The translations under genes and the position numbers were made by a program. The notes beneath the pieces are model-generated. The model did no database searches. It was not told where the DNA came from and worked only from the letters and a program-made list of their open reading frames with translations. A stretch of 64,000 nt of DNA. It comes from Propionibacteriales bacterium. GTDB lineage: Bacteria; Actinomycetota; Actinomycetes; Propionibacteriales; Nocardioidaceae. Positions within the stretch are counted from its first letter, which is position 1; the number at the start of each line of letters is the position of its first letter. The stretch is from contig JAPLCB010000011.1 of assembly GCA_026392455.1 (NCBI GenBank), positions 1 to 64,000 on the forward strand, written 5' to 3'. This document shows, in pieces, positions 42,582 to 45,406 of this stretch.

Positions 42582-43181
42582 ATGACCGAGATCCCGGTGG
42601 AGAGCCTCCTCGACGCGGCTCGTGCGCAGTTCCTGCGCACTGGTGTACGCCGGACCAGCGGCGACGACATCGCCCGCCGAGCCGGGGTCAACCGGGCCAC
42701 CCTGTACCGCCGGCTGGGCACCAAGGACGAGATCGTCCGGCGCACCTACCGCCAGGAGACCGAGCGGGTCCTCGCCGCGATCGAGGCGGCTACCGGCCCG
42801 GTGCCGGCACCCGGGACCCCGGGTTTCGACGCCGAGGCCCACGTCGAGCGCTTCTTCACCGTCACGGTCACCGAGCTCCGCGAGAACGCGCTGCTCGCCC
42901 AGCTCCTCGAGATCGACCGCGAGCAGACCCTGCTCGGTCTCACCCTCGGCGCCGGCGACACGCTGGCGGTCTCCAGCCTCCTGGTCGCCGACCGGATCCG
43001 CGCACTGCGGGCGTACGTCGGCAACGTCCGCACCGACGACGTCGACGACCTGGCCGCGACTCTGGCTCGGTTGGCGCAGTCACTGCTGATCACCCCGGAC
43101 GCTCCCCCACGGTTGGGGTCGAAGTCCCGGATGAACCAGTACGCCCGGTCCGTGATCGCCCCGATGATCCTGGGGCGGTAG
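42582..43181 (+). CDS. TetR family regulator, divergent to DUF2236 gene
   Basis: 199 residues. N-terminal HTH: FLRTGVRRTSGDDIARRAGV and NRATLYRRLGTKDEIVRRTY. The C-terminal half has ARVAQSLLITPD-like helices (LARLAQSLLITPDAPPR). It most likely represses the DUF2236 gene and itself through the palindrome at 42542-42568. Ligand unknown. It ends 9 nt before xthA. Confidence 0.9.
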   Translation: MTEIPVESLLDAARAQFLRTGVRRTSGDDIARRAGVNRATLYRRLGTKDEIVRRTYRQETERVLAAIEAATGPVPAPGTPGFDAEAHVERFFTVTVTELRENALLAQLLEIDREQTLLGLTLGAGDTLAVSSLLVADRIRALRAYVGNVRTDDVDDLAATLARLAQSLLITPDAPPRLGSKSRMNQYARSVIAPMILGR

Positions 43182-43190
43182 CCTCCCGGC

Positions 43191-43973
43191 GTGCGCATCG
43201 CCACCTGGAACGTCAACAGCCTCCGCTCCCGCATCGACCGTGTCGAAGCCTTCCTGGACCGGCACGAGATCGACGTGCTCGCCGTCCAGGAGACCAAGGC
43301 GAAGGAGGAGCAGCTCCCCCTGATGGGGTTGCAGGCCCGCGGCTACGAGGTCGCCGCAGCCGGCTACAGCCAGTGGAACGGCGTCGCGATCATCTCCCGG
43401 GTCGGACTGGAGGAGGTCGAGGTCGGTTTCCCCGGGATGCCGGAGTTCGACGGCGCCAGCGAGGCCCGGGCGATCGGGGCGCTGTGCGGAGGGGTGAAGC
43501 TCTGGTCCCTGTACGTGCCGAACGGCCGCAAGATCGGCGACCCGCACTACGTCTACAAGCTCGACTGGTTGGCCCGGCTGCAGGAAGCCGCCGCGACCTG
43601 GTCCGACCGCCCGGTGGCCCTGGTCGGCGACTGGAACATCGCACCGACCGACGAGGACGTCTTCGACGTGGCCCAGTTCGCTACCTCGACCCACGTGACC
43701 CCGCCGGAACGCGCGGCCTTCCAGGCCTTCCTGGACAGCGGGTACGCCGAGGTCACCCGCGACCACACACCGGGCCCCGACGTCTACACCTACTGGGACT
43801 ACTACCGGCAGCGGTTCGAGCGGAACCGCGGCCTGCGGATCGACTTCGCGCTGTGCACGGCACCGCTGGCGGCGCGCGTCACCGGCGCCTTCATCGACAC
43901 CGACGAGCGTGATCCCGCGCAGGGCACCGGAAGCCCCAGCGACCATGCTCCGGTCGTGTTCGACATCGCCTGA
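43191..43973 (+). CDS. xthA: exodeoxyribonuclease III
   Basis: 260 residues, GTG start. AP-endonuclease fold motifs: ATWNVNSLRSRI, LAVQETKAKEEQLP, YVPNGRKIGDPH, ALVGDWNIAPTDEDV and GSPSDHAPVVFDIA. It acts at abasic sites and on 3' ends in base excision repair. A 52-bp piece of this gene (43803-43854) recurs inverted at 44844-44895, beyond the Abi gene. Confidence 0.96.
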   Translation: MRIATWNVNSLRSRIDRVEAFLDRHEIDVLAVQETKAKEEQLPLMGLQARGYEVAAAGYSQWNGVAIISRVGLEEVEVGFPGMPEFDGASEARAIGALCGGVKLWSLYVPNGRKIGDPHYVYKLDWLARLQEAAATWSDRPVALVGDWNIAPTDEDVFDVAQFATSTHVTPPERAAFQAFLDSGYAEVTRDHTPGPDVYTYWDYYRQRFERNRGLRIDFALCTAPLAARVTGAFIDTDERDPAQGTGSPSDHAPVVFDIA

Positions 43974-43992
43974 GAGGCTTGTGGATTGCGGC

Positions 43993-44021
43993 TTGAGGTC
44001 GAACCCCATGCGTTCTAGACT
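43993..44021 (+). promoter_or_regulatory. sigma-70-type promoter of the Abi RNA/gene
   Basis: TTGAGG (43993-43998), 17 nt, TAGACT (44016-44021). Spacing is ideal and both boxes match the TTGACA/TATAAT pattern in key positions. Transcription would begin near 44028, just at the start of the structured leader. Confidence 0.55.
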
Positions 44022-44025
44022 GGAA

Positions 44026-44085
44026 CTCGTAACGCCCCAGTGGACCTTCGGCTAACCCCGGAACCCTGGGGCTAACGCTTTTCTC
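44026..44085 (+). ncRNA. structured leader RNA upstream of the Abi gene
   Basis: Stem GCCCCAG (44034-44040) pairs with CTGGGGC (44066-44072) over a 25-nt loop that contains GGCTAACCCCGG. CTAACGCTTTTCT follows, which looks like a weak terminator. The related strings GGCTAAC and GCTAACGC recur, so other pairings are possible. Rfam describes an abiF RNA motif found just upstream of Abi-family genes; this could be one, but I cannot run the covariance model. Confidence 0.5.
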
Positions 44086-44099
44086 GGAGGGTGGCCACG

Positions 44100-44792
44100 T
44101 TGGACCCGGCACAATTAGATGGCCTTGAAGAGTTCGTGAGCGTTCCTCGGTTCGGTCGGTACCTGAGCAGATATCAAGGGTCTCGAACGCACGCGTCGCG
44201 GATGTACGGATGGAACGTTGCAGCCTCGGCGGCATTCTGGGGCCCGATCTGCATCCTCGAGGTAGCGGTGCGCAACGCCATCCACGACCAGTTGGTCGAA
44301 GGACGCAAACGCGACGACTGGTGGAATGACCCGTACCTCAACCTGTGCCACCACGAGAGAGACGGCATCCAGTCCGCGATCAGCACCTTGTCCGCGCGAG
44401 GCACCGAGAACCCGAGCAGCGATCAAGTTGTCGCCGCAACCTCGTTCGGCCTGTGGGTTGGACTGACCGGCGAAGGAATCCTCCACAGGAGGGAACTGCG
44501 CTACGAGACGACGCTTTGGCAACCGCGGATCGTCAAGGCGTTCCCCCATGCCGGCGCACGCCGGCGGAAGTACATCCATGCGGAACTGGACAAGGTAAGA
44601 AGGTTGCGCAATCGGATCGCACATCACGAGCCGATCTACGCGGCGCCGCTGACTCAGATCTACGAGTCGATCCTTGACGTTTCAGGCATGGTTCATCCCG
44701 ACGCTCAGACGCTCATCCGAGATTCAAGCCGGGTGCGTGAAGTGATTGCGGACATGAGGAACGCCCTCACCAGCGGCGACGTCCGGTTCTGA
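44100..44792 (+). CDS. Abi family (AbiD/F-like) HEPN protein
   Basis: 230 residues from TTG at 44100, chosen because GGAGG lies 9 nt upstream; an in-frame GTG at 44091 touches that site with no spacer. N-terminal LEEFVSVPRFGRYLSRYQG, then WGPICILEVAVRNAIHDQLV. The HEPN RNase motif is RRLRNRIAHHEPIY (R-x4-H) in the C-terminal half. Abi-type proteins stop phage growth by arresting the infected cell. A TTA codon and many A/T-ending codons differ from neighbours and suggest transfer. Confidence 0.82.
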   Translation: MDPAQLDGLEEFVSVPRFGRYLSRYQGSRTHASRMYGWNVAASAAFWGPICILEVAVRNAIHDQLVEGRKRDDWWNDPYLNLCHHERDGIQSAISTLSARGTENPSSDQVVAATSFGLWVGLTGEGILHRRELRYETTLWQPRIVKAFPHAGARRRKYIHAELDKVRRLRNRIAHHEPIYAAPLTQIYESILDVSGMVHPDAQTLIRDSSRVREVIADMRNALTSGDVRF

Positions 44793-44829
44793 CTAGGACC
44801 AATCAACAGATCCCGACCTGCGAGCCTTC

Positions 44830-44895
44830 CACCTACTGGGACTACAGCGCGAAGTCGATCCGCAGGCCGCGGTTCCGCTCGAACCGCTGCCGGTA
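44830..44895 (-). pseudogene. fold-back remnant of xthA
   Basis: 44844-44895 is a perfect inverted copy (52 bp) of xthA 43803-43854. It is preceded by a 16-bp direct copy (44830-44845) of the adjoining xthA bases 43787-43802. The direct and inverted pieces meet head to head, as in a template-switch fold-back. It carries no open product and marks the far edge of the Abi insertion. Confidence 0.9.
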
Positions 44896-44898
44896 CGC

Positions 44899-45285
44899 TC
44901 AGGCAGGCCAGGGGTCCGTCGCCACCAGGTGCGCGCGGACCAGTGCGCCCGTCCGGTGTGCGGTGATCCCCTGGTAGTCGGGGTCCTTCACCATGGCGAT
45001 GAACGCCTGGCGGGACGGGTACCTGACGATGATCACCGCGTCCCACCAACCCGCACCGTCGTCGCCGATCACGACCTGCCCACGATCCCCGGCATAGGTG
45101 ATCGTGGCACCGGCACGGTCGAGGTGAGGTCTGATCGCCTCGACGTAGGTCAGGTACCCCGCGGCGCCGTCCGCTCCGAACGCCAACAGGTTGAGCATCT
45201 GGACGGGCCCGTCGGAGGTCTCCGCCTCGGCCTGAAGAGCTGCGAACTGGTCGCGGGTCGGGTCAACCGGATAGTCGTGCGTCAT
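44899..45285 (-). CDS. DUF1330 domain protein
   Basis: 128 residues from MTHDYPVDPT. GPVQMLNLLAFGADGAAGYL, YVEAIRPHLDRAGATITYAG and WWDAVIIVRYPSRQAFIAMV are typical of the DUF1330 dimeric alpha-beta barrel family. Function is unknown. The start at 45285 has GAGGAA about 9 nt upstream. Its stop is 3 nt from the xthA fold-back remnant, so the rearrangement ended right behind it. Confidence 0.85.
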   Translation of the reverse strand: MTHDYPVDPTRDQFAALQAEAETSDGPVQMLNLLAFGADGAAGYLTYVEAIRPHLDRAGATITYAGDRGQVVIGDDGAGWWDAVIIVRYPSRQAFIAMVKDPDYQGITAHRTGALVRAHLVATDPWPA

Positions 45286-45367
45286 CGGCGTAATTCCTCG
45301 TGCTCTCGGTGGCGTGGACCCGTGATGGCGCCCTGAGCCCTGACTGACCGGCAGGAACACCGGCGGA

Positions 45368-45406
45368 CGGGAGCCCCGCGGACGTCAAGCGTCCGTGGGC
45401 CTCCCG
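45368..45406 (-). terminator. terminator hairpin after the surface protein gene
   Basis: Arms CGGGAGCCCCGCGGACG (45368-45384) and CGTCCGTGGGCCTCCCG (45390-45406) pair with 15 of 17 matches around a 5-nt loop. It lies 11 nt beyond the stop of the LPDTG protein. Confidence 0.75.

What the first reader, a model, noticed from the sequence alone, without database searches (positions are those of the whole stretch)
43993..44792. Abi/HEPN gene with its own promoter and structured leader RNA
A near-consensus promoter (TTGAGG-17-TAGACT) feeds a short RNA with a 7-bp stem just before a HEPN-motif Abi gene that has foreign codon use. Rfam lists an abiF RNA found in this position. If the RNA binds and restrains the protein, this would be an RNA-controlled (type III-like) phage-defence system.
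Basis: partly seen in the sequence, partly recalled or inferred. Interest (0 to 1): 0.72.

Follow-up and report, generated by a model that had tools for sequence, protein, structure and literature searches.

The report
RNA-restrained HEPN toxin, new RNA family
A bacterial suicide-type defence gene is preceded by a small, folded RNA that related genes in other bacteria also carry, often on the opposite DNA strand, which suggests that the RNA is a separate safety catch on an RNA-cutting toxin rather than just the start of the toxin's message.

Summary
The gene (start most likely TTG 44100) encodes a HEPN protein of the PD-T4-5/Abi_2 group. Its leader is conserved as one hairpin in the window and 11 relatives (type I). 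Rfam's abiF model does not match in this genome; the hairpin belongs to an RNA family that my Rfam 15 searches did not recognise. A model (R2) from 17 relatives' RNAs shows strong covariation (8 of 14 pairs changed on both sides; 0 of 500 shuffles). It matches 41 of 77 sources at E<=0.01 (17 are training), on the strand opposite the toxin gene; the window's leader matches more weakly (E 0.025). A -10 box precedes the RNA in 60 of 65 R2-matched and 12 of 13 type-I RNAs (background 1.8%). Of 66 hits in 394 genomes, 43 lie within 1 kb of a PD-T4-5-model gene, all 43 opposite and at its 5' side. The window's same-strand arrangement forms one clade of the protein tree. A cis-only leader does not explain this. 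Best reading: a type III-like RNA antitoxin holding a HEPN RNase in check. Expression, binding, toxicity and phage defence are inferred, not shown.

The parts
43993..43998 (+). -35 hexamer TTGAGG of the RNA/toxin promoter
   Evidence: sequence; TTGA-type hexamers at the matching place in several type-I relatives by eye
44016..44021 (+). -10 hexamer TAGACT, 7 nt before the conserved 5' GUAACG
   Evidence: 12 of 13 type-I RNAs (L117 included) have TANNNT at this place; background 1.8%
44029..44082 (+). small structured RNA; inferred 5' end at GUAACG, inferred 3' end at the U-run
   Evidence: R1 60.6 bits (it is a training sequence); independent model R2, built without it, 16.2 bits, E 0.025 over 382 kb and 4e-5 over 601 bases; folding z -3.1
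44034..44072 (+). hairpin: outer stem 44034-44040/44066-44072, bulge 44041, pairs 44042-44043/44064-44065, internal loop 44044-44046/44063, upper stem 44047-44051/44058-44062, loop 44052-44057
   Evidence: pairs kept by changes on both sides in relatives; minimum-energy fold
44079..44082 (+). U-run 6 nt after the hairpin, possible termination or processing point
   Evidence: sequence; TTTT near this place in 6 of 13 type-I RNAs; no canonical terminator found
44086..44091 (+). Shine-Dalgarno GGAGGG, overlaps the GTG that the ORF list gives as start
   Evidence: sequence and position before TTG 44100
44100..44792 (+). HEPN/Abi toxin gene of the PD-T4-5/Abi_2 group, 230 aa
   Evidence: PADLOC PD-T4-5 E 1.2e-14; 26 of 32 members of A9 match Pfam Abi_2 at E<=0.01, the window protein itself does not
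44607..44624 (+). HEPN motif R-N-x-x-x-H (RNRIAH, residues 170-175)
   Evidence: R170, N171, H175 invariant in 32 aligned sequences

Best explanation
It is a two-part RNA-controlled toxin. The protein is a HEPN ribonuclease of the AbiF/AbiD superfamily (PD-T4-5 branch), probably a dimer, that can cut cellular RNA and arrest the cell. The hairpin RNA of about 54 nt is made in excess from its own promoter, is bound by the protein and blocks its active site, probably through the conserved pyrimidine-rich internal loop. In the window's clade the RNA lies in front of the gene on the same strand, and the toxin is made only when transcription reads on past the hairpin; in other clades the same kind of RNA is transcribed divergently as a separate gene. 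When a phage upsets RNA synthesis or stability, the RNA would run short and the toxin be freed. Shown here by sequence: the RNA family, its structure, promoters, strand flip, genetic linkage and the conserved HEPN residues. Inferred: expression, excess, binding, inhibition, RNase activity, dimer, phage defence.
For: Leader conserved at about 50-65% protein identity in Nocardioides, Brevibacterium, Curtobacterium and Mycolicibacterium. Covariation: 3 of 15 pairs changed on both sides in 8 type-I sequences (score 0 of 500 shuffles, though 57 of 500 shuffles reach 3 such pairs; slid partners none); 8 of 14 in 17 divergent ones, score 0.384 against 0.158 shuffled (0 of 500), slid 0.04-0.10; RNAalifold finds nearly the same structure unaided. 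Reciprocal detection: R1 (type I only) matches 15 places in 14 of 67 non-training sources at E up to 10, 11 at E<=0.1 and 6 at E<=0.01, all 15 on the strand opposite the gene; R2 (divergent only) gives the window's leader as the best match of the window. Promoters: TANNNT 3-11 nt before the RNA in 39 of 41, 21 of 24 and 12 of 13 RNAs; other strand 3 of 41, 0 of 24, 0 of 13; background 1.8%. Linkage: 66 R2 hits at E<1e-4 in 394 genomes, 43 within 1 kb of a PD-T4-5-model gene (4 of the 43 are training RNAs), 43 of 43 opposite and 5'; 25 of 30 loci fetched for the best hits lie beside an Abi homologue. Strand flip on the protein tree: the 11 type-I rows form one set, 96/88. Precedents: RCd22 binds and neutralises AbiFCd (PMC12373285; abstract, sections 6 and 7 and passages); PbAbiF-ncRNA structure 8VZ6, nucleotides in an ncRNA bulge inhibit the RNase (PMC12737573, passages); PD-T4-5 gives Abi-type defence, is called TA-like and a distant relative of AbiF/D (PMC9519451, passages).
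Against: No expression or binding data. Rfam abiF does not match. The window RNA has one hairpin, not the repeats usual in type III systems; R1 finds one copy in the genome above chance. R2's match to the window is weak (16.2 bits; E 0.025 in 382 kb), and the genome scan at E<=0.01 with stricter filters lists no match for this genome. 24 of 77 sources have neither an R2 match at E<=0.01 nor a type-I RNA. 23 of the 66 RNA hits have no PD-T4-5-model gene within 1 kb; 5 of 30 loci fetched have no Abi homologue by tblastn. 21 of 64 PD-T4-5-model gene places have no listed R2 hit upstream, the window among them. No structure model could be made. The PDB profile hit to 8VZ6 is weak (E 0.99), below false hits to designed ankyrin proteins.
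Confidence: 0.75

Rival explanations
1. The hairpin is only a cis-acting leader of the toxin mRNA (attenuator, translation block, or an operator to which the protein binds to limit its own synthesis); it has no separate life as an RNA.
For: In the window it lies between promoter and ribosome site with no room for another promoter, and a U-run follows. AbiFCd expression is also affected by its RNA in cis (PMC12373285, section 7 and passages).
Against: 41 of 77 sources have the RNA on the strand opposite the gene at E<=0.01 (43 of 44 such matches; the one exception is a second, palindromic match in L063), with its own -10 box, so there it cannot be that gene's leader. No canonical terminator was found in the window stretch.
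Confidence: 0.1
2. The RNA is a guide or activating cofactor (Cas13-like or otherwise) that directs the HEPN nuclease to a target, rather than an inhibitor.
For: AbiF is described as the forerunner of Cas13 (PMC12737573, passages); the RNA is closely linked to the protein and has a variable apical loop.
Against: By eye no spacer-like segment: only the short apical loop and stem letters vary; one copy, no repeat array.
Confidence: 0.06
3. RNA and protein form a toxin-antitoxin pair as above, but its role is to stabilise mobile DNA rather than to defend against phage (overlaps with the best explanation; only the last step differs).
For: Relatives are found in 522 of 72,556 plasmid records; the window copy lies after xth beside a scar, with foreign base composition.
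Against: PD-T4-5 is reported to give Abi-type phage defence (PMC9519451, passages). Both roles can coexist.
Confidence: 0.25
4. The hairpin is a chance GC-rich inverted repeat and the gene an Abi gene without RNA control.
For: Inverted repeats are expected in DNA of 70% GC; the longer stretch folds no better than shuffles (z -0.9).
Against: Conservation, covariation, promoter and linkage statistics.
Confidence: 0.02

Closest known systems
AbiF with its ncRNA (RCd22/AbiFCd of C. difficile; PbAbiF/AbiFr, PDB 8VZ6; Rfam RF03085)
   Same: HEPN protein of the Abi_2 superfamily; upstream structured hairpin RNA with its own promoter; same-strand arrangement with read-through in the window clade; a bulge or internal loop in the hairpin.
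   Different: RNA not recognised by RF03085; one hairpin instead of RCd22's two abiF motifs; PD-T4-5 rather than AbiF branch of the protein; in many relatives the RNA is divergent, an arrangement I did not see described in what I read (abstract, sections 6-7 and passages of PMC12373285; passages of PMC12737573).
PD-T4-5 (E. coli anti-phage system)
   Same: Best PADLOC match, E 1.2e-14; Abi-type defence, called TA-like and a plasmid-borne distant relative of AbiF/D (PMC9519451, passages).
   Different: No RNA partner in the passages read; 'RNA antitoxin', 'non-coding' and 'noncoding' have 0 occurrences in that text. An E. coli plasmid relative (L077, PD-T4-5 model E 8.6e-16) has by eye, on the opposite strand, TATAAT, a folded stretch and a strong terminator, but R1 and R2 do not match it.
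Type III toxin-antitoxin systems (ToxIN, CptIN, TenpIN)
   Same: RNA antitoxin and RNase toxin side by side with the RNA in front, in the window clade.
   Different: Different toxin fold (recalled); RNA repeats are a key feature there (PMC12373285, passages), one unit here.

Membership tests
Rfam abiF RNA (RF03085) | covariance-model match over the gathering score of 37 bits | tested here: not met
   none in the window, the genome or 12 records; not among listed matches for 17 and 18 loci at E<=1 and E<=5. No control genome passed the cut-off either
Pfam Abi_2 / AbiF-AbiD protein superfamily | profile match | tested here: inconclusive
   window protein E 0.019, 15.7 bits against cut-off 25.6; 26 of 32 members of A9 match at E<=0.01, the window's not among them
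PD-T4-5 defence protein group | PADLOC PD-T4-5 profile match | tested here: met
   E 1.2e-14, residues 14-184; no curated cut-off is given
PD-T4-5 defence protein group | abortive-infection protection against phage | not testable with these tools
   needs experiment
HEPN ribonucleases | R-x(4)-H type motif (R-N-x-x-x-H), conserved | tested here: met
   R170, N171, H175 invariant in 32 aligned sequences
HEPN ribonucleases | four-helix HEPN fold, dimer | not tested
   structure prediction unavailable
Type III toxin-antitoxin | RNA gene linked to the toxin gene | tested here: met
Type III toxin-antitoxin | antitoxin RNA binds and inhibits the toxin protein | not testable with these tools
   inferred from AbiF precedents only
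Type III toxin-antitoxin | tandem repeats in the antitoxin RNA | tested here: not met
   one R1 match above chance in the genome; one hairpin in the leader
CRISPR-Cas13 | two HEPN domains (recalled) and a repeat-spacer array | tested here: not met
   230-aa protein with one R-N-x-x-x-H motif in the alignments; the repeat finder on 43000-45400 shows no array

The most novel reading that the evidence does not exclude
PD-T4-5-type Abi proteins as a whole are the toxin half of an unrecognised RNA-antitoxin family. Their antitoxin is an autonomous small RNA that has switched between a divergent gene and a co-transcribed leader at least once, so toxin and antitoxin are balanced by two different circuits built from the same parts, and the RNA can persist alone after loss of the toxin (possible orphans such as L117).
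Probability: 0.5. Interest if true: 0.75.

Novelty: new variant of a known kind. Interest (0 to 1): 0.62.

Why it matters
PD-T4-5 was described as a TA-like Abi gene; the passages I read name no partner for it. This work points to one: a small hairpin RNA, found next to such genes in Actinomycetes and on alphaproteobacterial plasmids and not recognised by my Rfam 15 searches. If right, single-gene Abi annotations become two-part RNA-protein systems, the covariance models find the RNA half, and the AbiF group, from which Cas13 is proposed to descend, gains a branch. The natural strand flips are a ready-made test of cis against trans action. A practical warning follows: assays that clone the ORF without its upstream 150 nt would leave out the safety catch.

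Tried and rejected
Rfam: no useful match. The best near-hit in the leader, sR34 on the minus strand (22.5 bits against 40 needed, E 0.024), was rejected as chance. Folding energy of the 68-nt leader was not significant (z -0.9); only the core defined by conservation is (z -3.1). The first MAFFT alignments of the divergent RNAs misplaced the 3' side of the outer stem by one column in part of the rows. For the model I kept 17 of 29 sequences that align consistently; the other 12 (L058, L047, L053, L046, L068, L065, L049, L063, L074, L050, L021, L059) were left out and then found by R2 at E<=0.01. Alignment A7 (59 matches up to E 10; counted: 12 of 14 pairs with a change on both sides) is fitted to the model and includes chance matches; I do not lean on it. 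In one search two measures do not exceed the shuffles (3 pairs with change on both sides: 57 of 500; further pair types: 500 of 500). Counts: from 44 R2 matches at E<=0.01 I dropped L023 (partial) and the second match of L063, and L029 fell out as a copy of L017, leaving 41; from the 30 genome-scan loci I dropped 6 already in that set (L090, L094, L095, L108, L111, L115), leaving 24, of which 5 have no Abi homologue. U-runs after the RNA are not universal (24 of 41, 8 of 24, 6 of 13), and my stem picker gave a bonus for TTTT, so the first of these counts is biased; the -10 box was not used for picking. In the first orientation pass I read '-' matches unflipped; corrected. Sources without an R2 match at E<=0.01 or a type-I RNA (24 of 77): L003 and L004 (E 0.05, 0.02), L005, L006, L009, L011, L012, L013, L014, L016, L024, L026, L028, L037, L040, L043, L051, L062, L067, L076, L077, L080, L081, L083; several of these show a GC-rich hairpin by eye, others none. 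Five loci with no Abi homologue beside an R2 hit were read: L092, L101, L105, L113, L116. R1 in 394 genomes: 4 matches at E<=0.01, namely the window, G593 (L118, same place as L045), G661 (L117) and G425 (L119, partial, probably chance). Tree: only loci with an RNA label were put in; L061 fell out (ambiguous bases), L027, L036 and L037 were not entered; the 4 'iv' labels and L011 were set by eye, L003 and L004 on weak R2 matches. The second strand flip (L011) rests on a weak R2 match (10.2 bits, E 3.2) and a -10 box seen by eye, so it is tentative. The RNA set contains near-copies (L017/L018/L029; L007/L008; L045/L084), so sequence counts are not independent events. A viral-contig scan gave no relative; 4 of 50,697 phage records did.

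Full report
What was checked. Two corrections. The start is most likely TTG 44100: relatives align from this codon with ATG, GTG or TTG, and GTG 44091 overlaps the Shine-Dalgarno GGAGGG. And the promoter is weak by the E. coli consensus (8 of 12 by my count; a scan needing 9 found none). GC3 is 0.75 against 0.92-0.94 in five of six other window genes tested and 0.82 in the sixth.

The protein. Pfam Abi_2 is below its cut-off for this protein (E 0.019), but PADLOC's PD-T4-5 model matches at E 1.2e-14, and 26 of 32 members of alignment A9 match Abi_2 at E<=0.01. Over these 32 sequences R17, Y36, N39, E54, R58, N59, W74, W119, W140, R170, N171 and H175 are invariant; the last three are the HEPN R-N-x-x-x-H. 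A profile search of the PDB lists 8VZ6 'Abi family protein' at E 0.99, below false matches to designed ankyrin proteins; a review says 8VZ6 is PbAbiF with its ncRNA (PMC12737573, passages). In the genome the gene is single. In its family 28 of 341 genomes, its own included, have a match. The closest named relatives are in Nocardioides soli (65%), Brevibacterium (62-63%), Curtobacterium (51-53%) and on a Mycolicibacterium plasmid (60%).

The RNA. Rfam's abiF is not found. Yet the leader is conserved: GUA(A/G)CGCCCC, then a hairpin closed by GGGGC, in L030-L036 and L069, each with a -10-like box just before it. L037, whose gene match is partial, shows no such leader. In 8 sequences 3 of 15 pairs change on both sides, and the slid controls have none; the covariation score beats 500 of 500 shuffles, but 57 of 500 shuffles also reach three such pairs. 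L072, L045 and L084 carry a variant of the same hairpin. The window and these 11 make up type I; in all 12 the RNA is on the gene's strand.

The strand flip. Many more distant relatives also have a hairpin with CCCCGG...CCGGGG before the gene, but the type-I features, a -10 box, G(U/A)A, the CCCC stem, a U-A pair above a pyrimidine-rich internal loop, GGGG, often a U-run, appear when it is read on the opposite strand. To test this without choosing by eye I built a covariance model from type I only (R1) and searched 79 sources. It gave 31 matches at E up to 10: 12 training, 4 reverse-strand echoes of training hairpins, and 15 in 14 of the 67 other sources; all 15 lie on the strand opposite the gene, 11 at E<=0.1 and 6 at E<=0.01. 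A second model from 17 divergent RNAs (R2) gave 44 matches at E<=0.01 in 41 of 77 sources, 24 of these not used in training; 43 of the 44 are opposite the gene, the exception being a second, palindromic match in L063. It also gave the window's leader at 44030-44080, + strand, 16.2 bits: E 0.025 over 382 kb, and 4e-5 when only 601 bases around it are searched. Another 24 sources have neither an R2 match at E<=0.01 nor a type-I RNA. Covariation in the 17: 94.5% of cells paired, 8 of 14 pairs changed on both sides, score 0.384 against 0.158 in shuffles (0 of 500 as high) and 0.04-0.10 when slid.

Promoters. The -10 box was not part of either model. TANNNT ends 3-11 nt before the RNA start in 39 of 41 R2 matches in relatives' loci, in 21 of 24 matches from the genome scan (30 loci less 6 already in the first set), and in 12 of 13 type-I RNAs (the 12 of type I and the orphan L117; L030 is the miss). 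The gaps found run from 3 to 9, mostly 6 or 7. On the other strand of the same hairpins it is 3 of 41, 0 of 24 and 0 of 13; at random places in the loci 1.8%. This supports both the direction and the 5' end.

Linkage seen from the RNA side. R2 over 394 genomes of the class gives 69 genomes with a match at E<=0.01. Of 66 hits at E<1e-4, 43 lie within 1 kb of a place found by the PD-T4-5 model; all 43 are on the opposite strand and at the gene's 5' side; 4 of the 43 are RNAs from which R2 was built, and some genes have two RNAs, so 43 hits are not 43 genes. Of the 30 loci fetched (best hit of 30 genomes), 25 have an Abi homologue by tblastn (19 of 24 if loci already known are left out), again all on the opposite strand. 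Five have none. From the gene side, 43 of 64 gene places have a listed R2 hit at E<=1e-3 within 600 nt upstream; the 21 without include the window and G593, which carry type I.

History. In a tree of 57 proteins (only loci with an RNA label were entered) the 11 type-I proteins form one set (96/88); L011, whose sense RNA is tentative, sits apart; the sense label needs 2 changes against a shuffled mean of 11. A hairpin that keeps its sequence features, fold and promoter while changing strand relative to the gene is hard to explain as a leader and easy to explain as a separate RNA.

How it most likely works. By analogy with AbiF, where the RNA neutralises the toxin in cis and in trans by direct binding (PMC12373285, abstract) and where nucleotides in a bulge of AbiFr block the RNase (PMC12737573, passages), I infer that this RNA is the antitoxin of a HEPN RNase. 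In the window only 17 nt separate the U-run from the start codon, so there is no room for a second promoter and the toxin must come from read-through; this resembles RCd22-abiFCd, where the short RNA dominates and a longer transcript carries the toxin (PMC12373285, section 7). Release on phage attack is a guess based on type III systems and on PD-T4-5's Abi-type defence (PMC9519451, passages).

Setting. The cassette sits after xth; a 52-nt perfect inverted copy and a 16-nt direct copy of xth lie beyond it. A search with xth found it in 23 of 24 genomes of the genus, the window's included; in 3 of the other 22 the list shows a partial second copy of the same part of xth shortly downstream. I read these 3 and 5 others: the 3 have other small genes between xth and the partial copy, the 5 have no such copy. 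This looks like a variable insertion site.

What is known in print. Searches of the held library brought up AbiF papers but none describing this RNA or a divergent RNA with PD-T4-5 genes, judging by listings and the passages read. The paper of Zilberzwige-Tal et al. did not appear under its own entry in these listings, and I read only what others say of it, so overlap with it cannot be excluded.

Noticed in passing
43787-43854 and 44830-44895: A 52-nt perfect inverted copy of xth (43803-43854) at 44844-44895 and a 16-nt direct copy (43787-43802) at 44830-44845: scar of a rearrangement behind the cassette. In 3 of 22 congeners with xth a partial second copy lies shortly downstream, with other small genes between.
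   Followed up: partly
L117 1501-1561: A type-I RNA (58.2 bits) with no Abi homologue found by tblastn; by eye a transposase-like ORF lies about 110 nt downstream. Possibly an antitoxin that outlived its toxin.
   Followed up: partly
L092, L101, L105: Strong R2 RNAs with no Abi homologue found beside them.
   Followed up: partly
L009, L012, L077, L081: PD-T4-5-type genes whose leaders R1 and R2 do not match, but which by eye show, on the opposite strand, a -10 box and a strong terminator-like hairpin; their proteins form one set, 100/100.
   Followed up: partly
L056 1160-1214 and 1365-1421; G448:C2 786834-786948 and 773501-773616: Two divergent RNAs in tandem in some loci, reminiscent of repeat units in type III antitoxins.
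   Followed up: no
L003 2293-2402: TPP riboswitch (RF00059, E 2e-9), unrelated.
   Followed up: no
L036: Type-I RNA intact while the first part of the toxin reading frame looks out of frame (tblastn covers residues 64-229 only).
   Followed up: no
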